Shown here in pieces: positions 1,845-10,447 of a DNA stretch of 64,000 nt. The number at the start of each line of letters is the position of its first letter. The stretch's first letter is position 1. Source of the stretch: Holophagales bacterium (GTDB lineage Bacteria > Acidobacteriota > Thermoanaerobaculia > Multivoradales > Multivoraceae); the NCBI GenBank assembly GCA_009837885.1, contig VXSP01000043.1, forward strand, positions 62,001 to 126,000, written 5' to 3'. The notes beneath the pieces are model-generated. The model did no database searches. It saw only the letters and a program-made list of their open reading frames with translations, and had not been told where the DNA came from. Both the position numbers and the translations under genes were made by a program.

Positions 1845-2588
1845 CTAGTCGCCGGCGGCCAGGCCGTCTTCACGGGGAGACCGGACGGTCACGGCGACCA
1901 CCAGGCCACTGGCGTCGGATCCGGGGTAGGGGAGCGCCAGGACCAGCGGCTTTCCGACCCACACGTTCAGGTGGCCGTTGAAGACACGCTCGTCGAGGAC
2001 GGCGCTGCGGCTCCGCTCGATCTCGACCCCGTACAGCTTGAGCCGGCGGTCGAGCAGCACGGTTCCGACGCGGAAACCGAGCCGGAACTCGGTGCCGATC
2101 TCGTAGCGGACGTTCTCGCCCTCCGTCGCTTCGAACTGGCCCTCGCCGAGCAGCCGGTAGCTCGTGAAGGCCAGCCAGTTTCCCAGCTCGTCGGTGAGCT
2201 GCGCCGGCAGTTCGGAACGCGGGTCGCCGCTGCCACGGCGCGACGCCTCGAGGATGAAGATCTCGAACTCGATCTGCTGGCGGGGGTGGTCGAAGTCACG
2301 CAGCAGGGCGAGCAGGTGCTCGAGCACGCTGCTCCGGTCCCTCAGCACCAGGGTGTTCGTCGCCCGCTGCAGTTCGATCGTCCCCTGGGGCGACATCTCG
2401 TTCTGCATCCACTCCAGGGCGTCGTCGGCCCGCTGGTGCTGCAGGGTGAAGGCGTGGCGGATCTGGGTCTCGGCCTCCTGCTGCGCGCTACCGGGCTGGG
2501 CGAACGTCGGCTGCGGCGTGCCGGCGGCAGCCAGGAGCGCTGCAACCAGGAACGCTGAGGCGGCCAGGGCCGGGCGAAGGACGCTCAC
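1845..2588 (-). CDS. Exported secretin N-domain-like protein
   Basis: A 247-residue protein with an N-terminal signal peptide (hydrophobic stretch about residues 8-25, likely cleavage after TFAQ). Residues about 38-105 resemble the ring-building N1/secretin_N domains of GspD/PilQ: a repeated-strand pattern with ELQRATNTLVLRD and then LLRDFDHPRQQIEFEIFILEAS. In full secretins this last stretch leads into the beta-barrel; here only about 140 residues follow and no barrel-sized region exists. It is therefore a stand-alone periplasmic secretin-domain protein, perhaps a partner or adaptor of a GspD encoded elsewhere. The start is GTG at 2588, overlapping the upstream stop (GTGA). The C-terminal half is of unknown fold. 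Confidence 0.7.
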   Translation of the reverse strand: MSVLRPALAASAFLVAALLAAAGTPQPTFAQPGSAQQEAETQIRHAFTLQHQRADDALEWMQNEMSPQGTIELQRATNTLVLRDRSSVLEHLLALLRDFDHPRQQIEFEIFILEASRRGSGDPRSELPAQLTDELGNWLAFTSYRLLGEGQFEATEGENVRYEIGTEFRLGFRVGTVLLDRRLKLYGVEIERSRSAVLDERVFNGHLNVWVGKPLVLALPYPGSDASGLVVAVTVRSPREDGLAAGD

Positions 2589-3154
2589 GGCGCCACCACC
2601 AGGACTACGTCGAGGCCGCCGCTGTCGTTGCCGGGAAGCTGGTAGACCTGCAGCGGTTCGTCGCCGAGCGGCTCGACCAGCGGCGCCATCGCGATGTGGT
2701 CGGGCAGCACCGGCGGGAGGTCCGCGATCTCCTCTGCCGGCGGCGCGGTCTCCGGCCACAGCAGGAAACTCAAACCGAGCGCCGCGGCCGCGGCGCCGGC
2801 GGCCAGCACCGAAGCTACGGGCAGGCGCCGGCGGGCGCTTCGCGCCTCGTTCAGCCGCCTCTCGGTTGCCCGTCCGTCGAGTTCGAGCCGTACGCGCTGG
2901 CGGATCGCTTCGATCTCGCCCGCGCTGACGTCATCTTCTTCGGCGCCGGCGGCAGTGTCGCGGGCGGCAGAGCCGCTGAACAACAGCAACGGATCGGCGG
3001 CGAGCGAGGCCGCGCGGCAGTGTTCGCAGTCTTCGCGGTGGCGGAGAGCGTCTTCCCAGGCGGCGTCCACTTTCGCGTCGCCGACCTCCGAACTCCGTTC
3101 GGCCTGCTCGCGTTCGCGCAGGAGGGCGGCCCAGTCGGGGCAGAGAGAGGTCAT
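2585..3154 (-). CDS. Membrane-anchored anti-sigma factor with zinc-binding ZAS motif
   Basis: A 189-residue protein. The cytoplasmic N-terminal part has a ZAS-type zinc motif, H39-x3-C43-x2-C46 (HREDCEHC), which in other anti-sigma factors holds an ECF sigma factor. A single transmembrane helix follows at about residues 112-132 (VASVLAAGAAAAALGLSFLLW), then a roughly 55-residue extracytoplasmic tail. The gene sits directly after the ECF sigma gene with an ATGA overlap, the standard arrangement of cognate pairs. The function is inferred from motif plus neighbour; the signal it responds to is not visible. Confidence 0.8.
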   Translation of the reverse strand: MTSLCPDWAALLREREQAERSSEVGDAKVDAAWEDALRHREDCEHCRAASLAADPLLLFSGSAARDTAAGAEEDDVSAGEIEAIRQRVRLELDGRATERRLNEARSARRRLPVASVLAAGAAAAALGLSFLLWPETAPPAEEIADLPPVLPDHIAMAPLVEPLGDEPLQVYQLPGNDSGGLDVVLVVAP

Positions 3155-3870
3155 GGGCGCTCCTTTCTCCCGGCACGGGTCCCGGCACGTCTCCCGGTTC
3201 CATGCGCGTACTCGGGGTAACGCCTGAGCAACTCCTCGCGGAGCAGCTTGCGGCTGTTGAACAGGTGGTTGCGGACGGTCGAGGGACGGATGCCGAGGAT
3301 GCCGGCGATCTCCTTGCCGGCCAACCCCTCCATCTCGCGCAGCACGAAGACCGCGCGCTGCTTCTCGCTCAAAGTGGATGCGAGCTCGTGGAACACGGCC
3401 CGGACTTCACTGGCGGAGAGCGAATCGAGTTGCCGCGCGGAGACTTCGCCCCGTTGGTGCTCGTGGTGAAACTGGAAGCTCTGCAGCGAGCGGAGACGGG
3501 AGGAGCGGGAGCGCAGGTGGTCGATCGCCAGGTTGGACACGATCCGGTAGATCCAGGTGTTCGGGCTGTAGCGACGGTCGAAGCGATGCCGCGAGTTCCA
3601 GACCCGCAGGAAGGCGATCTGGACGATGTCGCGGGCGTCTTCCCGGTCGCCCACCAGCCGGGTGGCCAGTTGAACCAGCCGGGTCGTCTTGCGTCTCATC
3701 AGTTCGTCGAGCGCCAGATCGTCGTCGCCGCGAAGGCCTTCCAGGAGTTCGGCGTCGGACGCGTCGGCCCACGCCACCTGACGTTGGTGGCGGGAGTACG
3801 CGATCGTAAGACCGCTCCGGGGAGGATCTTCGCGTGGCGGTTCCATGCGGATGGCTTGCGCGGATCTCAT
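3151..3870 (-). CDS. ECF-type RNA polymerase sigma factor
   Basis: A 239-residue sigma-70-family protein. Region 2 spans about residues 50-120 (ARDIVQIAFLRVWNSRHRF, then YSPNTWIYRIVSNLAIDHLR), and region 4 spans about 160-220 with a helix-turn-helix (LSEKQRAVFVLREMEGLAGKE, then ILGIRPSTVRNHLFNSRKLL). No region 1 or 3 is present, as expected for an ECF factor. It is the promoter-proximal gene of an operon with its anti-sigma factor, a secretin-domain protein, gspF and gspE, all linked by 1-4 base overlaps or short gaps. It may therefore be autoregulated and control secretion genes (inference). The ATG at 3870 lacks a strong Shine-Dalgarno sequence; an internal ATG at 3846 is an alternative. 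Confidence 0.92.
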   Translation of the reverse strand: MRSAQAIRMEPPREDPPRSGLTIAYSRHQRQVAWADASDAELLEGLRGDDDLALDELMRRKTTRLVQLATRLVGDREDARDIVQIAFLRVWNSRHRFDRRYSPNTWIYRIVSNLAIDHLRSRSSRLRSLQSFQFHHEHQRGEVSARQLDSLSASEVRAVFHELASTLSEKQRAVFVLREMEGLAGKEIAGILGIRPSTVRNHLFNSRKLLREELLRRYPEYAHGTGRRAGTRAGRKERP

Positions 3871-4013: not shown

Positions 4014-5297
4014 ATGTGGTTCCTCTACCAGCTCGCGATGGCGGCAGGGTTGGGCGTGGCGGCCCCGGTGCTGCTGGCCCGGCGCGGCCGGCACTACCTG
4101 CCTACGCTGCCCGCCCGGCTGGGACGCCTGCCGGAGGCCCGGGGGACCCGACCGCTGTGGCTGCACGCCGCGTCGGTGGGCGAGGCCGGCGTAGCGGCGA
4201 CCCTGGCGCGGGCCCTGCCGCCGGACCTCGACCTGGTGGTGACGACGGTGACGCCCACCGGCCAGGCCGCGGCGAAGAAGCTCTTCGCGCCGCTGACGGT
4301 GGGCGGCAGAAGCGTGGTCGTCACCTACCTGCCGTTCGACCTGGGGTTGCTGGTCGGGCGGTTCCTGGACCGTTACGCGCCGCGGGCGCTGGTCCTCTTC
4401 GAGAGCGAGCTCTGGCCCCTGCTCCTTCGGGACTGCCACCGCCGGTCGGTTCCCGTGGCGGTGCTCAACGCCCGCATCAGCGACCGCAGCTACGGGCGGA
4501 TGAAGCGGGCGGGACGCCTCTACCGGCGATTTCTGCTCGACCCGCTGGGGCGGCTGGGCGCCCAGAGCCCGCAGGACGAGGAGCGTCTACTGAGCCTCGG
4601 CGCCGGGTCGGTCCGCACGTCGCTGACCGGCAACCTGAAGTTCGACACTCCGGAACCGGCCCCGGTGGCGGACCTGGAGCAGGCCCTGCGGGATCTCGCG
4701 GGGGATCGGCCGATCCTGATCGCGGGCTCGACGATGCCCGGCGAAGAGCCGATCGTCCTCGACGCCTTCGAGCGACTGGATCGCGAGGCGCTGCTGGTTC
4801 TGGCGCCCCGCCATCCGGAACGCTTCGACGAAGTATGGCGAGAGGTGGAGGAACGGTCGTTGCCGGGGATCCGACGGAGCCGGATCGCCGCGGCCGGGGA
4901 CACGGCGCCGCGGTCGGCCTCGCCGCCCGGGATCGTCCTGCTTGATTCCCTGGGCGAGCTGGCCTCGATCTACCGGCTCGCGTCCGCCGCCTTGATCGGC
5001 GGCACGCTCGTGCCGACCGGCGGCCACAACCCGATCGAGGCGGCGCGTTTCGGCGTGCCGGTGATCGTTGGCCCGTCGATGGAGAACTTCCGGCGCATCG
5101 CGCGCGACCTCGAGGCCGCGGACGGCGTGACCGTGGCGGCTGACGGCGAGGCACTGACCGAAGCGTGGCGGCGTTGTCTGGACGACCCGGCCGGGGCGGC
5201 GGAGCAGGGCTGGCGCGGTATGGCGGTCGTCGACCGGAACCGGGGCGCGGTGGAGCGCTCGGTGGAGCTCCTGAGCGAACTGGTGGACCTGGATTGA
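4014..5297 (+). CDS. waaA: 3-deoxy-D-manno-octulosonic acid (Kdo) transferase
   Basis: A 427-residue GT-B glycosyltransferase that transfers Kdo from CMP-Kdo to the lipid A precursor at the inner membrane. An N-terminal membrane helix (about residues 2-18) is followed by LWLHAASVGEAG (the family's conserved catalytic-glutamate motif), FESELWP, a LTGNLKFD stretch and the acceptor/donor motif GGHNPIEAA near residue 340, all hallmarks of KdtA/WaaA. Length matches the family (about 420-430). ATG 4014 is the first codon giving a normal N-terminus; longer in-frame starts would add about 60 unrelated residues. It overlaps lpxK by four bases, so the two lipid A steps are co-expressed. Confidence 0.93.
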   Translation: MWFLYQLAMAAGLGVAAPVLLARRGRHYLPTLPARLGRLPEARGTRPLWLHAASVGEAGVAATLARALPPDLDLVVTTVTPTGQAAAKKLFAPLTVGGRSVVVTYLPFDLGLLVGRFLDRYAPRALVLFESELWPLLLRDCHRRSVPVAVLNARISDRSYGRMKRAGRLYRRFLLDPLGRLGAQSPQDEERLLSLGAGSVRTSLTGNLKFDTPEPAPVADLEQALRDLAGDRPILIAGSTMPGEEPIVLDAFERLDREALLVLAPRHPERFDEVWREVEERSLPGIRRSRIAAAGDTAPRSASPPGIVLLDSLGELASIYRLASAALIGGTLVPTGGHNPIEAARFGVPVIVGPSMENFRRIARDLEAADGVTVAADGEALTEAWRRCLDDPAGAAEQGWRGMAVVDRNRGAVERSVELLSELVDLD

Positions 5298-6283
5298 GCG
5301 CCGCCCGCAGTCCCTGGCAGCGGTTCTACGAGTGGGCGCACCACCGCCGGCGCCGCTTCTGGTCGCCGCGCGCCGCGAGCCTCGGCCGCAAGACGGTCAG
5401 CATCGGCAACCTGCACTGGGGCGGCAGCGGCAAGACGCCGACGGTGATCGCCGCGGCGCGCGGCCTGGCCGACCAGGGCCTCAGGGTCGCCGTGCTGTCG
5501 CGGGGCTACCGCCGCAGGGATCGGGAACCGCGGGTCGTGAGCCTCGGCGAGGGGCCACTCGCCTCGGTGGAGCAGGCCGGCGACGAGCCGGTGATGCTCG
5601 CCGAGCAGGCGCCGGGCGTGGTGGTGGCCGTCGGCGCCGACCGCCGCGCGGCCGCCTCCCTGGCCCTCGAGCGGGCGCCGGACATCGAGGTCTTCCTGCT
5701 GGACGACGGCTTCTCCCATGTGCGGGTACGCCGCGATGTCGAGGTCCTGACCTTTCCCGCCGCCGACCCCTTTGCCGGCGGCCTCCTGCTGCCGGGCGGC
5801 CGCCTGCGCGAGCCTCTGGGCATGGTGCGCCTCGCCGACGCCGCGGTCATCACCGGCCTCGAAAAAGGCGCCGAACCGCCGGCCGACTTCGAACCGACCC
5901 TGCACCGCCACCGCTTCGCCGGCCGGGTGTTCACGTCGACGCTTCGGTCCGAGCTCCTGGGTGGCCCGTCGCCGGAGCGACCGCTGCTCGTCACCGGCGT
6001 CGCTCGTCCCGAGCGCGTCGCCCGCACCGCGGCGGCTGCCGGCCTGGAATGCGTGGACCACCTCCGCTTCGCCGACCACCATGGCTACCCGCCGCGTTCT
6101 CTTCGTGCGATCGAGTCCGCCTGCGCTCGCCATCGCTGTGACGCCGTCGTCACGACATCCAAGGACGCCGTCAAGCTCCGCGGCCGCCTGCCGGCGGGCG
6201 CGCCGCCGCTTCAGGAACTCAGCGTCGAGGCGCGGCTCGAGCCGGAGTTTCTGCGGTGGCTCTCGGATCGCCTGGAACGCTGA
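5294..6283 (+). CDS. lpxK: Tetraacyldisaccharide 4'-kinase
   Basis: A 329-residue lipid A kinase that phosphorylates the 4' position of the disaccharide precursor at the inner membrane. The P-loop GNLHWGGSGKTP (about residues 38-49) is diagnostic, followed by SRGYRR, DEPVMLA and LLDDGFSH. Length equals the family norm. Translation starts at TTG 5294 inside the waaA stop (TTGA overlap); a longer in-frame reading from 5165 would lie within waaA and adds only low-complexity residues. A hairpin follows the stop. A decayed second copy of the 3' part of this gene lies at 7390-7470, behind the next gene. Confidence 0.93.
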   Translation: MSAARSPWQRFYEWAHHRRRRFWSPRAASLGRKTVSIGNLHWGGSGKTPTVIAAARGLADQGLRVAVLSRGYRRRDREPRVVSLGEGPLASVEQAGDEPVMLAEQAPGVVVAVGADRRAAASLALERAPDIEVFLLDDGFSHVRVRRDVEVLTFPAADPFAGGLLLPGGRLREPLGMVRLADAAVITGLEKGAEPPADFEPTLHRHRFAGRVFTSTLRSELLGGPSPERPLLVTGVARPERVARTAAAAGLECVDHLRFADHHGYPPRSLRAIESACARHRCDAVVTTSKDAVKLRGRLPAGAPPLQELSVEARLEPEFLRWLSDRLER

Positions 6284-6286
6284 GCC

Positions 6287-6314
6287 CCGGAACGCCGTGG
6301 AGACGGCATTCCGG
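6287..6314. terminator. Hairpin after lpxK
   Basis: Inverted repeat of 12-base arms (6287-6298 and 6303-6314, one mismatch) around a GGAG loop, starting three bases after the lpxK stop. There is no T-tract, as is usual in such GC-rich genomes, so it may terminate waaA-lpxK transcription or protect the 3' end. Confidence 0.55.
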
Positions 6315-6394
6315 CGCCGCCGCCGTCGCGAGGTGCGCCTGCCTGGAAGCCGGCCGCCAATCCGTCCTTGTCTGCAGACGCCGCCGGTCTACCG

Positions 6395-7387
6395 ATGTCC
6401 GAGAAACCGAAACCGCCCAGGCAGTCCAGTCAGATCGCCCAGCCCCACGACGCCCTGTTCCGGCGCGTGTTCTCGGAGCCGGCGCAGGCCGCCGCCCTGT
6501 TGCGCGAGACCCTGCCCGTGGCCGTTCGGGACCGCTTCGCCTGGAACACCCTGAGGCGCCTCCCGGACACCTTCGTCGACGAACGGCTCAGGCGGACCGA
6601 GTCCGATCTCCTGTTCGAGGTCGACCAGCCGGGCGGCGAGCCCCCCGTACGCCTCTACGTGCTGATCGAGCATCAGTCTTCGCCCGACCCGTTCATGGCG
6701 CTGCGCCTGCTGCGCTATTGCACAAGCGTTCTGGAGGCGGCGGTTCGCGAGGTCCCGGAGCGGAAGCGCCTGCCGGCGGTTCTCCCCGTGGTGTTTCACC
6801 AGGGGCGCCGCCCCTGGCCGTATCCGACATCTCTCGACGGGCTGTTGGGGGAGTCGGCGCGGGACCTGCCGTGGGGTCCCCGGCTCGACTTCCTGCTGCT
6901 GGACCAAGGCGCCGGCGGGCTGTCGACGGTAGTCGGCTCGCCTCTGGGCCGGCTGGCCCGGTATCTGATGCTCGCCGTCTCGGGGCCGGAGTCGGAGCGG
7001 GCGGCGGCTCTTGAGCGTGCGGTCGAGTTGATGCGAGACTTGCTATCGGCCGAGAGGCCGCACGACCTTGAGGTGTTCCACAGCTACGTGTTCCACGGAA
7101 GGGAGGACCCGGCCATGATGAAGGAGGTCGAAGCGATGCTGGAGGAGATCGAGGCCAGGGGTCCGGACAGCGAGTTGAAGAGCCTGGGCCAATTGATCTG
7201 GGAGAGAGGCCAGAGGACGGGCCGTTCGGAGGGCGTCCGGCTCGGCGAACACCGCGCCACGGTCGCGACGGTCGAGGGCCTCCTGCGGGCCGGCGTGGAC
7301 TGGCGAGTGATCGAGTCGGCTACCGGCCTCGACCCGGGTGGCTTCAACGCGCTCAAGGAGCAACTGGGTTCGGATCGGGCCCCTTAG
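6395..7387 (+). CDS. Rpn-family (transposase_31) PD-(D/E)xK nuclease
   Basis: A 330-residue protein of the recombination-promoting nuclease family (E. coli RpnA-E, formerly called a putative transposase). The N-terminal HDALFRRVFS, then ESDLLFEV and YVLIEHQSS supply the D and E-x-Q residues of a PD-(D/E)xK core; LRLLRYC and LPAVLPVVFHQG are further family landmarks. The C-terminal 90 residues form the usual charged helical tail. Family members cut DNA and raise RecA-independent recombination. ATG 6395 is preferred over a TTG at 6368. It is a lone gene, flanked upstream by intact lpxK and downstream by a decayed lpxK fragment, suggesting insertion with local duplication. Confidence 0.85.
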   Translation: MSEKPKPPRQSSQIAQPHDALFRRVFSEPAQAAALLRETLPVAVRDRFAWNTLRRLPDTFVDERLRRTESDLLFEVDQPGGEPPVRLYVLIEHQSSPDPFMALRLLRYCTSVLEAAVREVPERKRLPAVLPVVFHQGRRPWPYPTSLDGLLGESARDLPWGPRLDFLLLDQGAGGLSTVVGSPLGRLARYLMLAVSGPESERAAALERAVELMRDLLSAERPHDLEVFHSYVFHGREDPAMMKEVEAMLEEIEARGPDSELKSLGQLIWERGQRTGRSEGVRLGEHRATVATVEGLLRAGVDWRVIESATGLDPGGFNALKEQLGSDRAP

Positions 7388-7389
7388 TT

Positions 7390-7470
7390 CAGGTCCGCCT
7401 CGCTGGCAGGGTGTTCACGTCGACGCTCCGGTCCGGCCTGCCTTGGCTGGCCGAGCGGCTGGAGGACTGA
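7390..7470 (+). pseudogene. Decayed 3' fragment of a second lpxK
   Basis: Read in the frame of 7390, this stretch encodes 26 codons that match two separate parts of the neighbouring lpxK. RLAGRVFTSTLRS corresponds to RFAGRVFTSTLRS of the intact protein (35 of 39 bases identical, 7396-7434 against 5912-5950). LPWLAERLED-stop corresponds to the extreme C-terminus LRWLSDRLER-stop (7438-7470 against 6251-6283). The roughly 300 bases between these parts are deleted. It has no start codon or ribosome-binding site of its own. Confidence 0.8.
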
Positions 7471-7569: not shown

Positions 7570-7962
7570 ATGTCCAGGAAGTTCGTTTCGCCGAAAGATC
7601 CGCTCCGGTACGAGCGGGAGCGGGTGAGCGATGTTGAGTACCGCGTGGCGCAGTCCGTTACCGCGTCTAGAACTCCTCGACAAAGCGCCAGCCAGGACGA
7701 GGCGGAGGAGGCGCACGACGACCTCTGTGTCGTTCTGCAAGAGCTTGAGGACGCCGCCAGGGAGGTCAGTTTCGGAAGCGGCACGTTCGACCGGGATCTG
7801 TACGAGGCTCTGTGCCGCGTCGGCCCTGCTGGCGCGGTCGACGGAAAGGTGGAGGTCGCCGACGGGTCGCTCGCCATCGCCGAGCACCTGCGGTCCTGGG
7901 GCTACTTCGTCATCTCGCCGGCGACATCCAGTGAGGACGGCGAGCCGAGGACCCTCAACTGA
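7570..7962 (+). CDS. Hypothetical protein in accessory island
   Basis: A 130-residue protein of no family I recognise. ATG 7570 is supported by GGAGG nine bases upstream (7556-7560). The N-terminus is basic and charged (SPKDPLRYERERV); the middle is acidic and helical (about residues 42-66); the C-terminal half contains LRSWGYFVISP. There are no membrane segments, cysteine motifs or catalytic signature. It lies between the Rpn nuclease/lpxK fragment and the HNH nuclease, so it could be an accessory or immunity partner of the latter (speculative). An inverted repeat follows its stop. Confidence 0.6.
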   Translation: MSRKFVSPKDPLRYERERVSDVEYRVAQSVTASRTPRQSASQDEAEEAHDDLCVVLQELEDAAREVSFGSGTFDRDLYEALCRVGPAGAVDGKVEVADGSLAIAEHLRSWGYFVISPATSSEDGEPRTLN

Positions 7963-7989: not shown

Positions 7990-8034
7990 GTGCGCCGTGA
8001 CGTCGGGCAGCCGCGGAAAGTGACTGCAGGCCCG

Positions 8035-8976
8035 ATGCGCACCGACCCCGACGCGGCGATTCGAGCGGCCGCATGCGCTGAACTGGACCGACTCCGCTTC
8101 GCGCATGGCCCCAAGCTGCCCTGGAGCGTGATTGACCGGGGCTTCAGCTTCCGTGGCGAGAAGGTCCACTTCGCTGGCCGCGCCGTCGGCATTTTCAAGC
8201 CGAGGCAGATGAGCGCGGCGCTCAGCATCAAGACGGTGGCTCCCCGGGCGGGTCGGCGGTTCTGGTATCGCGATCAGATGGGCGAGCCGGACTACCGAAC
8301 AGGATTGCTTGCCTACGACCTTGCTCGCGGTGGAAGGGGGGATTCCACCAACCGGGCTCTCGATGAGGCGTACAGTCGGCGCGCGGCCCTGATCTACTTC
8401 GTCGGCGTCTCGCCGGCCGTCTACGAGCCGCTCTCGCCGGTGTGGGTGGAAGAACTCGACTTCGACGCCGGACGCGTCCTGCTCGCCGCCGCGGACGCCT
8501 TCCACCCGACGATGAGCTCCATCCAGGCCGCGCAAGCCGGCGGCTCCTCCGCCGAACTGCGAGAGCGTTCCTACTCTCTCGTTGCCACCAAGAAGCGCAA
8601 TCACCAAGCATGGTTCAGCAGCCGGACCAAGTCCGCGTACGGTCATCGCTGCGCCTTCAGCGGCCTGACGCTGTCGCGCCTGCTGGTGGGGGCGCACATC
8701 CTGCCGGATGCCGAAGACGGCCCGGCGACCGTGACCAACGGCATCTGCATGTCGACCCTTCACCACACCGCGTTCGATGCCGACTTGATCGGCGTGGACA
8801 CGAACTGCCGCGTCCACGTTGCCAGGTCGGTCAGGGATGGCCGGGACGGTCCCCTGCTTGAGAGCCTGAAAGGGCTCGATGGCGCCGGGCTCCGTCTACC
8901 CGCGCGTTCCGAGGATCACCCGGACCGGGAGTTCCTCGATTGGCGATTCCAGCGCTTCCTCGAAACCGCCGACTGA
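8035..8976 (+). CDS. HNH restriction-type endonuclease
   Basis: A 313-residue protein with a DNA-recognition-like N-terminal half (about residues 5-180, including LPWSVIDRGFSF and IFKPRQMSAALSI) and a C-terminal HNH nuclease domain. The HNH core is CAFSGL, then VGAHILPDAEDGPATVTNGI and LHHTAFDADLIGVD, matching the 'AHI.P......NGi.L...hH.aFD' pattern of restriction HNH enzymes of about 300 residues. No methyltransferase is adjacent, so it may be modification-dependent or a solitary nuclease. ATG 8035 is chosen because family similarity begins just after it; GTG 7990 would add 15 residues. It is the last gene of the accessory island and convergent with the symporter gene. Confidence 0.85.
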   Translation: MRTDPDAAIRAAACAELDRLRFAHGPKLPWSVIDRGFSFRGEKVHFAGRAVGIFKPRQMSAALSIKTVAPRAGRRFWYRDQMGEPDYRTGLLAYDLARGGRGDSTNRALDEAYSRRAALIYFVGVSPAVYEPLSPVWVEELDFDAGRVLLAAADAFHPTMSSIQAAQAGGSSAELRERSYSLVATKKRNHQAWFSSRTKSAYGHRCAFSGLTLSRLLVGAHILPDAEDGPATVTNGICMSTLHHTAFDADLIGVDTNCRVHVARSVRDGRDGPLLESLKGLDGAGLRLPARSEDHPDREFLDWRFQRFLETAD

Positions 8977-8990
8977 TTCGCGGCGCGCTC

Positions 8991-9006
8991 GACGCGGCAC
9001 CGCGTC
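8991..9006. terminator. Hairpin between convergent HNH and symporter genes
   Basis: Perfect 6-base stem GACGCG / CGCGTC with a GCAC loop in the 61-base gap between two convergent stop codons. It is suited to act in both directions, but has no T-tract. Confidence 0.4.
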
Positions 9007-9037
9007 TCTAGGTTGGATCGAGTCGGTCCGCCTTGCG

Positions 9038-10447
9038 TCAGGCAAACGACCGCCCCCCGATCACGGCCCAGATGATCCACAGGATCGCGACCGGGCAGAC
9101 GAAGCGCAACAGCACGTCACGCCAGATGAAGTACCACCGGCTCACGTCGCCGTGGCCGTCGGCGAGAGCGTCGCGGGACTTGCTGCGGCTCAGGAACCAG
9201 CCGACGAAGATCGCCAGCGTCAGGCCGCCGAGGGGCAGGATCCAGTTCGAGACGGTGTAGTCCATCGTGTCGAAGAAACCGGCGGTGCGCTCGCCCAGGG
9301 GCGCCCAGGAGGAGAACCCGGTGACGGCGCCAAGGGAGAGCGCCGAGGGGATGCCGAAGAGGAAGACGGCGCCGCCCGAGAGCAGGCTGGCCTTTCGCCG
9401 GCTCAGACCCCTCCGGTCGATCAGGTAGGCGGCGACGACTTCGAGCAGCGAGATGGTCGAGGTCAGCGCCGCGAAGCCGACGAGCAGGTAGAACAGCGGC
9501 GCCAGGACGACGCCTAGCGGCATTTCGTAGAACATCTGCGGCAGGGTCGTGAACAGGATCGTCGCGCTCTTGCCGAAGGTCCCAACGCGTTCCGCGGCGT
9601 CGACGCTGAAGATGATGGAGAACATGACGATGCACGCCATCAGCGCCACCAGGGTGTCGAGCAGGGTGATCGCGGCGGCGCTCCTCGGGATCGACTGTCT
9701 CGATCTCATGTAGGAGCCGTAGGTGATCATCGCGCCCATGCCGACGGAGAGCGTGAAGAAGGCATGGCCGACCGCCTCCAGCAGGCCGTCGGCGGTGACC
9801 GGACCGACATGGAACAGGAAGCGGACCGCCTCGCCGAAGCCCGGGCTCCAGAACGAGTTGACGACGAGCAGGATGAGGATGCCACCGAGCACCGGCATCA
9901 GCGTCTTGGCCACCCGTTCGATTCCGCCCTGCACGCCCAGGGCGACGACGCCGACCGTCACGGCCATGAACAGGGCGTGGAAGCCGATCTGGAGCGGCCC
10001 GTTGCCGAGGAAGGCGCCGAAGGAGTCGCCGAGGGTCTGTCCGCCGGTGTCGAAGCCGCGAAACGACCAGCTCAGGCACTGGCCGAAGTAGTACACCGTC
10101 CAGCCGGCGATCAGGGCGTAGTACGACAGGAGGATGAAGCTGCCGAGCGTTCCCAGGGCGCCCACCGCGCCCCAGGCCCGGCCTCCGACCGCCCCCTTTG
10201 CGGCCTCCACGAACGCGCCGACCGGGCTTTGCCGGGTGCTGCGTCCGATGATCAGCTCCCCCATCATGATCGGCAGACCGATCAGCACGATCGCGACCAG
10301 GTAGACGAGGACGAAGGAACCGCCGTCGTTGGCGTACGTGATGTACGGGAACTTCCAGATGTTGCCGAGGCCGATCGCCGAGCCGACGGCGGCGAAGATG
10401 AACCCGAGTTGACCGAACCTGCCGCGTCCGCCGGAGCCGTTTGCCAC
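9038..10447 (-). CDS. Sodium-dependent transporter of the SNF/NSS family
   Basis: A 469-residue inner-membrane symporter. The N-terminal signature GSAIGLGNIWKFPY (about residues 22-35) is the sodium- and substrate-binding TM1 motif of the neurotransmitter:sodium symporter family (LeuT fold), and about 11-12 hydrophobic helices follow. Substrates in the family are amino acids or amines; none can be assigned here. GTG 10447 is supported by AGGAG seven to eight bases upstream. It appears monocistronic, with a 90-base gap to the upstream gene, and is convergent with the HNH nuclease gene. Confidence 0.92.
   Translation of the reverse strand: MANGSGGRGRFGQLGFIFAAVGSAIGLGNIWKFPYITYANDGGSFVLVYLVAIVLIGLPIMMGELIIGRSTRQSPVGAFVEAAKGAVGGRAWGAVGALGTLGSFILLSYYALIAGWTVYYFGQCLSWSFRGFDTGGQTLGDSFGAFLGNGPLQIGFHALFMAVTVGVVALGVQGGIERVAKTLMPVLGGILILLVVNSFWSPGFGEAVRFLFHVGPVTADGLLEAVGHAFFTLSVGMGAMITYGSYMRSRQSIPRSAAAITLLDTLVALMACIVMFSIIFSVDAAERVGTFGKSATILFTTLPQMFYEMPLGVVLAPLFYLLVGFAALTSTISLLEVVAAYLIDRRGLSRRKASLLSGGAVFLFGIPSALSLGAVTGFSSWAPLGERTAGFFDTMDYTVSNWILPLGGLTLAIFVGWFLSRSKSRDALADGHGDVSRWYFIWRDVLLRFVCPVAILWIIWAVIGGRSFA

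What the first reader, a model, noticed from the sequence alone, without database searches (positions are those of the whole stretch)
6284..7470. Rpn nuclease gene sandwiched between lpxK and a truncated lpxK copy
Directly behind the Rpn nuclease gene, 26 codons match two separated parts of lpxK (35/39 bases in one block, and the C-terminus including the stop), with about 300 bases missing between. Rpn proteins promote recombination, so insertion of this gene may have duplicated the target's 3' end, which then decayed.
Basis: partly seen in the sequence, partly recalled or inferred. Interest (0 to 1): 0.65.

Follow-up and report, generated by a model that had tools for sequence, protein, structure and literature searches.

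The report
Toxin-gene hotspot leaving lpxK scraps
In a group of uncultured Acidobacteriota, the gap behind an essential lipid A gene repeatedly gains small toxin or nuclease genes, and broken copies of that gene's tail left behind suggest how they were spliced in.

Summary
Window 7393-7470 is a 26-codon scrap of lpxK's 3' half, with lpxK's stop codon and a 99-codon in-frame gap, directly behind an intact-looking Rpn gene. Both pieces exceed every control, and a second genome (G018) has the same structure.

In 20 genus loci the lpxK/transporter gap is empty (5-22 nt) in 11 and occupied in 9, by Rpn, HNH-nuclease, ParE- or HicBA-like genes. A second independent lpxK scrap, in G016, lies behind an HNH gene with no Rpn; a weaker one lies behind Rpn in G017. 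So scraps mark insertions at this site in general, not Rpn alone.

The scrap is not a copy of today's lpxK tail. G000's lpxK switches lineage in its last third, while the transporter side matches an empty-site genome. Best explanation: one-sided, lpxK-anchored recombination brought a new lpxK tail plus cargo and pushed the old tail downstream, where it decayed. Known parallels are 'insertion with long target duplication' of restriction-modification genes and single-crossover partial duplication. Two of 24 other Rpn loci in the order also have flanking direct repeats, in contrast to a published statement; HicA loci show repeats too.

The parts
5294..6283 (+). lpxK (tetraacyldisaccharide 4'-kinase), intact; 5' two thirds G008/G006-like, last third from another lineage
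   Evidence: PF02606, TIGR00682; mosaic; start TTG 5294 read from sequence
5911..5951 (+). part of lpxK repeated in the scrap
   Evidence: repeat family D2
6284..7392 (+). Rpn unit: spacer plus Rpn gene; 88% identical to G017, homology ends at 7392
6395..7387 (+). Rpn/YhgA-like nuclease gene (PF04754), 330 aa from ATG 6395 (alternative TTG start 6368)
7115..7387 (+). predicted internal start of the small antitoxin form RpnS (90 aa); AGGGAGGA at 7100-7107 upstream
   Evidence: Read from sequence; inference after PMC10327210
7393..7470 (+). lpxK 3'-end scrap, 26 codons in lpxK frame with stop, internal 99-codon deletion
7570..7962 (+). 130-aa ORF without a family match; in G018 fused to the scrap by a 192-nt deletion
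7990..8976 (+). HNH nuclease gene (HNH_2; like phosphorothioate-DNA restriction enzymes), probably the older occupant
8977..9037 (+). right edge of the insertion; the last ~10 nt (CCTTGCGTCA) resemble the empty-site spacer of G005/G011
9038..10447 (-). convergent transporter gene (called SNF/sss here by recall; no family scan was run), right flank of the hotspot; G006-like up to the border

Best explanation
The gap between the stop codons of lpxK and the convergent transporter gene is a neutral landing site in this genus. New DNA carrying an lpxK 3' end followed by a cargo gene (Rpn here, an HNH gene in G016) recombined with the resident lpxK through homology on the left side only. The cell kept a complete lpxK with a donor tail, gained the cargo, and the resident lpxK tail was pushed to the far side of the cargo, in front of the older HNH occupant. 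Freed from selection, that tail lost 297 nt in G000 and most of its length in G016 and probably G017. Shown: empty and occupied sites, the scraps, their orientation and position, the lpxK 3' lineage switch, and the lack of a switch on the transporter side. Inferred: the order of events and the route, either single crossover of a circular fragment or homology-facilitated illegitimate recombination. Rpn is most likely cargo (a genes-within-genes toxin-antitoxin or defence unit), not the machine that moved it.
For: Empty site in 11 of 20 and occupied in 9 of 20 genus loci. lpxK-like pieces in 4 of 9 occupied gaps, all on the lpxK strand and from its 3' half: G016 40.1 bits, G018 17.0, G000 16.3, G017 9.9; G000 and G018 share one event. 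G000 v G008 lpxK: 1.7% divergence in nt 1-540, 14.8% in nt 601-984. Ratio of 3' to 5' divergence: 11 empty-empty pairs 0.82-1.59; 19 pairs with at least one occupied site 0.92-8.71, median 1.92. G003 v G014, with different arrays: 1.3% then 8.9%. G000's transporter gene is 0-2.5% from empty-site G006 right up to the border. The scrap is not closest to G000's own lpxK in either piece. Laboratory precedent: PMC3240628 (passages) found partial lacZ duplications, 109-950 bp in the 14 sequenced clones, read by its authors as single crossover of circular molecules. ComEC and DprA families in 21 of 21 genus genomes.
Against: The scraps are short. At lpxK nt 616 the scrap shares a base only with G000/G018's own lpxK, and its C-terminal piece is not G006/G008-like (22 of 36), so the displaced tail is not simply the allele of the nearest empty-site genome. 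The genus recombines heavily, so an lpxK switch can have other causes (G018 differs from G000 within lpxK nt 661-870). G017's scrap (9.9 bits) barely beats the control maximum (9.5). Five of nine occupied sites show no scrap. G000 and G017 share the same right end of the Rpn unit but different lpxK pieces behind it, which random junctions do not predict unless one insertion decayed differently. The DprA and ComEC families are also found in E. coli and other control genomes, so they show little about competence.
Confidence: 0.6

Rival explanations
1. Rpn (and similar nuclease or toxin units) moves itself: nuclease cuts and repair insert the unit with a long, variable target duplication, which then decays.
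For: 2 of 24 other testable Rpn loci in the order have direct repeats across the gene at E<1e-6: in G042 a perfect 30-bp repeat starts right after the upstream stop and right after the Rpn stop and occurs nowhere else in that genome; in G043 about 70 nt of a neighbour gene's 3' end recurs beyond Rpn. Control placements: 0 of 72 and 0 of 30. Kingston 2017 (PMC5350276, sections 18 and 31 read) inferred two insertions of rpnC at one site.
Against: G016's scrap has no Rpn. 4 of 28 HicA loci also have repeats. Zhong 2023 (PMC10327210, section 4 read) found no target-site duplications around rpn genes and varying ends. RpnA cuts with little sequence specificity (PMC5350276 abstract).
Confidence: 0.15
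2. A site-specific mobile element used the lpxK 3' end as its attachment site and carried a replacement tail, as e14 does at icd (recalled), and lost its integrase.
For: A hybrid gene followed by a displaced tail is the expected anatomy.
Against: The gap ORFs that were read and the ones scanned against families gave no integrase; scrap starts differ (profile 534, 617, 794); insertions are only 0.7-3.1 kb.
Confidence: 0.1
3. An unrelated older tandem duplication of lpxK decayed, and genes were inserted between the copies by chance.
For: Tandem paralogues flank HicA elsewhere (L144, L155).
Against: The 11 empty sites have only 5-22 nt between the stop codons, so no second copy; at the lpxK locus scraps occur only in occupied sites; G000's lpxK 3' end switched lineage.
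Confidence: 0.1
4. Insertion-sequence activity carried lpxK tails about, and the scraps at the hotspot are by-products.
For: G019 has a clear lpxK 3' scrap 0.6 Mb away (39.0 bits) next to a DDE transposase ORF.
Against: Among the hotspot ORFs scanned the only transposase label is Rpn's own Pfam name; only one such case was seen.
Confidence: 0.05

Closest known systems
Insertion with long target duplication of restriction-modification genes (Nobusato 2000; seen only as cited in passages of PMC1643837 and PMC3874152)
   Same: A small selfish/defence gene inserted between direct copies of a stretch of the target; duplication length long and variable (order of 100 bp)
   Different: Here the duplicated stretch is internally deleted, the intact gene carries a different-lineage tail, and the cargo is Rpn or other small units in Acidobacteriota
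Single-crossover partial duplication / homology-facilitated illegitimate recombination (PMC3240628, passages)
   Same: One-sided homology in a gene's end gives a full gene, cargo, and a partial copy
   Different: A laboratory plasmid system; here natural, old and decayed
Rpn/YhgA-like genes as genes-within-genes toxin-antitoxin systems (PMC10327210, abstract and section 4)
   Same: Same gene family; predicted internal start; four-residue repeats vary in number between G000 and G017
   Different: That paper reports no target-site duplications around rpn genes
rpnC between panC and panD in Enterobacteriaceae (PMC5350276, sections 18 and 31)
   Same: Rpn gene at a repeatedly used site next to core genes
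   Different: No partial core-gene copy is described in the two sections read
e14/icd and icdC (recalled; one search gave a search listing only)
   Same: Replacement gene tail plus displaced old tail
   Different: Prophage with integrase; none seen here

Membership tests
Rpn (PF04754) nuclease | Match to the family above curated cut-off | tested here: met
   125.3 bits, cut-off 21; below the equivalog cut-offs of NCBIfam RpnA
Rpn (PF04754) nuclease | Variable C-terminal tail with four-residue repeats; candidate internal start codon | tested here: met
   G017 has several RSEG-type repeats where G000 has one; ATG 7115 with AGGGAGGA upstream. Actual translation from it was not testable
Rpn (PF04754) nuclease | DNA cleavage, toxicity blocked by RpnS | not testable with these tools
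   Needs expression
Insertion with long target duplication | Empty site in close relatives | tested here: met
   11 of 20 loci
Insertion with long target duplication | Direct copies of the target on both sides of the insert | tested here: met
   the far copy is partial and decayed
Insertion with long target duplication | Copies derive from one target (identical when new) | tested here: inconclusive
   scrap and own lpxK carry different lineage states; only four differing sites in the first piece
Integrase-borne island at a gene 3' end (e14 type) | Integrase gene in the insert | tested here: not met
   no integrase among the gap proteins scanned
Classical insertion sequence | Terminal inverted repeats and short target duplication | tested here: not met
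   none of the 20 inverted repeats listed brackets the Rpn unit at its ends; the duplication is long and gapped

The most novel reading that the evidence does not exclude
Rpn genes, and other small toxin or nuclease units, are minimal mobile units that enter core-gene 3' ends and leave long, variable target duplications, a footprint that earlier rpn surveys missed because the second copy decays to fragments.
Probability: 0.2. Interest if true: 0.7.

Novelty: new variant of a known kind. Interest (0 to 1): 0.48.

Why it matters
How single toxin-antitoxin or nuclease genes with no transposase enter chromosomes is an open question; for Rpn genes the published view (PMC10327210) is that target duplications are absent. 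Gene scraps at an lpxK hotspot with matching empty sites give a readable record of the join, and make the question testable by counting such scraps beside accessory genes.

Tried and rejected
Chance similarity in GC-rich DNA: rejected for G000/G018 and G016 by shuffles, 204 kb of controls and position-wise controls; not fully rejected for G017. The tblastn hits of lpxK to gaps of G003 and G014 (29-48% identity, most with stops) were set aside as out-of-frame readings of the HNH gene. Misassembly: rejected because G018 repeats the structure. Rpn as sole cause: rejected by G016. Homing by a sequence-specific nuclease in lpxK: not pursued; scrap starts differ. A full order of all insertions was not attempted.

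Direct-repeat survey: the order search gave 30 Rpn loci, 3 of them at lpxK; of the other 27, 3 were too short and 24 were tested, 2 positive at E<1e-6 (further matches got no locus). Four more had only weak repeats (E 0.001-0.007). Match starts were assumed at 1501; L092 and L104 were wrong (both judged too short) and L107 was off by 22 nt. Phylum search: 25 new loci, 5 too short, 20 tested, 4 with repeats at E<1e-4 (L119, L122, L136, L138); L138 lies in an rpn array and L122/L136 share a contig with two rpn genes, so these were not counted for or against; L119 is a tangle. HicA: 30 loci, 28 tested, 4 with repeats: tandem paralogues (L144, L155), a tRNA-SeC end (L169), short repeats (L150). 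HNH away from lpxK: 0 of 14 tested at E<1e-3.

Pair classes were typed by hand from the 32 close pairs: 11 empty-empty, 19 others, and 2 same- or similar-array pairs (G000-G018, G016-G019) dropped. G012-G014, which share most of an array, stayed among the 19. G002 was left out because its lpxK is broken in two, and pairs above 9% 5' divergence were not listed. Pairs are not independent. One search (Rpn in genome contigs) found nothing; one search found no solved structure; no defence-library match for Rpn. Literature searches that found nothing in point.

Full report
What is there. The window comes from a 4.56-Mb genome (G000) of a genus with 21 held genomes. In the window the order is kdtA-like gene, lpxK, Rpn (PF04754), a 78-nt lpxK scrap, a 130-aa ORF, an HNH gene, then a convergent transporter gene.

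The scrap. 7393-7470 reads VRLAGRVFTSTLRSGLPWLAERLED* in the frame of lpxK. Its first 41 matching bases repeat lpxK 5911-5951 at 90%. Its end matches lpxK's C-terminus and stop at 28 of 36 bases in the closest relative, a level reached by none of 29,163 control positions. By coordinates 297 nt, 99 codons, are missing in between. An lpxK profile gives 16.3 bits in G000 and 17.0 in G018, against at most 9.5 in 204 kb of other DNA from these genomes and 2.3 in 30 shuffles per gap.

A hotspot. 20 of 21 genus genomes have a recognisable lpxK and I read the downstream gap in all 20. In 11 the stop codons of lpxK and the transporter gene are 5-22 nt apart. In 9 the gap holds 0.66-3.1 kb. Contents: G000 and G018, Rpn, scrap, 130-aa ORF (shortened in G018), HNH; G017, Rpn, then an antitoxin-like ORF and the contig end; G016, an antitoxin-like ORF with a ParE toxin, a divergent HNH gene, an lpxK scrap, then HNH; G019 and G012, antitoxin-like ORF and HNH; G014 and G003, HNH with HicBA-like genes; G001, HicBA-like genes alone; G012 also carries HicBA-like genes, and G012 and G014 a further ORF. 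HicA and the divergent HNH score below their Pfam cut-offs, and the antitoxin-like ORFs and HicB have no matching family above cut-off, so those names are tentative. Rpn occurs in 3 of 21 genomes and close relatives of this HNH gene (75% or more) in 7 of 21, always at this site.

More scraps. lpxK-like pieces were found in 4 of the 9 occupied gaps, all on the lpxK strand and all from its 3' half. G016's is the strongest (40.1 bits, profile 534-653) and has no Rpn beside it. G000 and G018 share theirs (617-659). G017's (794-838, 9.9 bits) is only slightly above the best control, and is called probable because it lies within 60 nt of the Rpn stop. Thus the duplication does not depend on Rpn.

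How it got there. G000's lpxK is 98-100% identical to G008 over its first 480 aligned positions and diverges clearly from about nt 540 onward: 1.7% divergence in nt 1-540 against 14.8% in nt 601-984. The last 24 nt are closest to G017 and G012. For 11 pairs of empty-site genomes the 3'/5' divergence ratio is 0.82-1.59; for 19 pairs with at least one occupied site it is 0.92-8.71, median 1.92. G003 and G014, with different arrays, behave like G000 and G008 (1.3% and 8.9%). On the other side, G000's transporter gene is 0-2.5% from that of empty-site G006 up to the border. So the exchange looks one-sided, anchored in lpxK. The scrap carries states of other lineages at lpxK nt 628 and 648, but shares nt 616 with G000's own lpxK, and its end is nearer to G009, G012 and G001 than to G006 or G008. 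It is therefore not a plain copy of the present tail; which lineage it came from is open.

Mechanism. The simplest account is insertion by homology at the lpxK end only, with an illegitimate or circularisation join at the other. PMC3240628 (passages seen) reports that conjugated plasmids carrying the end of lacZ integrated and mostly left partial lacZ duplications, 109-950 bp in 14 sequenced clones, read as single crossovers. The visible switch in lpxK (about nt 540-570) lies slightly upstream of the scrap's left edge (about nt 613), but the edge may have eroded, so circle and linear routes are not separated. ComEC and DprA families are present in 21 of 21 genomes, which permits but does not show transformation.

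Is Rpn special? Kingston 2017 (PMC5350276; abstract and sections 18 and 31 read) reports RpnA as a nearly non-specific nuclease, four Rpn proteins that raise RecA-independent recombination when overproduced, and two entries of rpnC between panC and panD. Zhong 2023 (PMC10327210; abstract and section 4 read) reports rpn genes as toxin-antitoxin genes-within-genes and states that they lack target-site duplications. In the order, 24 other Rpn loci could be tested for direct repeats across the gene and 2 were positive at E<1e-6: a perfect 30-bp repeat in G042, placed right after the upstream gene's stop and right after the Rpn stop and found only there in 5 genomes searched, and about 70 nt of a neighbour gene's 3' end in G043. 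Controls: 0 of 72 window placements, 0 of 30 placements in other lpxK loci, 0 of 14 HNH loci elsewhere, but 4 of 28 HicA loci. So the footprint is present beside some Rpn genes but not shown to be specific to them.

The Rpn gene itself looks intact: 330 codons, a family match of 125 bits, an ATG at 7115 preceded by AGGGAGGA that would start a 90-aa RpnS, and a tail in which G017 has several RSEG-like repeats where G000 has one.

Verdict. This is a new variant of a known kind. I found no paper joining Rpn or YhgA-like genes with target duplication or with lpxK (for the wider topics); this library lacks most subscription journals.

Noticed in passing
L056:1506-1587 (G019:C1, minus strand): Another lpxK 3'-end scrap (39.0 bits, about 81% over 80 nt) 0.6 Mb from lpxK, next to a DDE transposase ORF.
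   Followed up: partly
L034 (G018), gap positions about 1128-1490: A 192-nt deletion relative to G000 fuses the lpxK scrap in frame to the 130-aa ORF, giving a 120-aa open frame.
   Followed up: no
L169:1060-1128 and 1736-1805: A HicA gene lies between a tRNA-SeC gene (1026-1125) and a 93% copy of its 3' part.
   Followed up: partly
L144, L155: HicA genes sit between tandem paralogues (about 78-84% identical) of one gene in two genomes.
   Followed up: no
L119: An Rpn gene has a 195-nt, 81% repeat on both sides, and a 65-nt, 98% piece of its own C-terminal region lies upstream of it.
   Followed up: partly
L051 (G002) 2086-3244: lpxK is broken into two overlapping pieces (residues 1-108 and 91-326) at an otherwise empty site: partial duplication or assembly fault.
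   Followed up: no
lpxK nt 661-870, G000 v G018: G018 and G000 are identical in lpxK except this block, which differs by 3-6 bases per 30: a likely gene-conversion tract.
   Followed up: no
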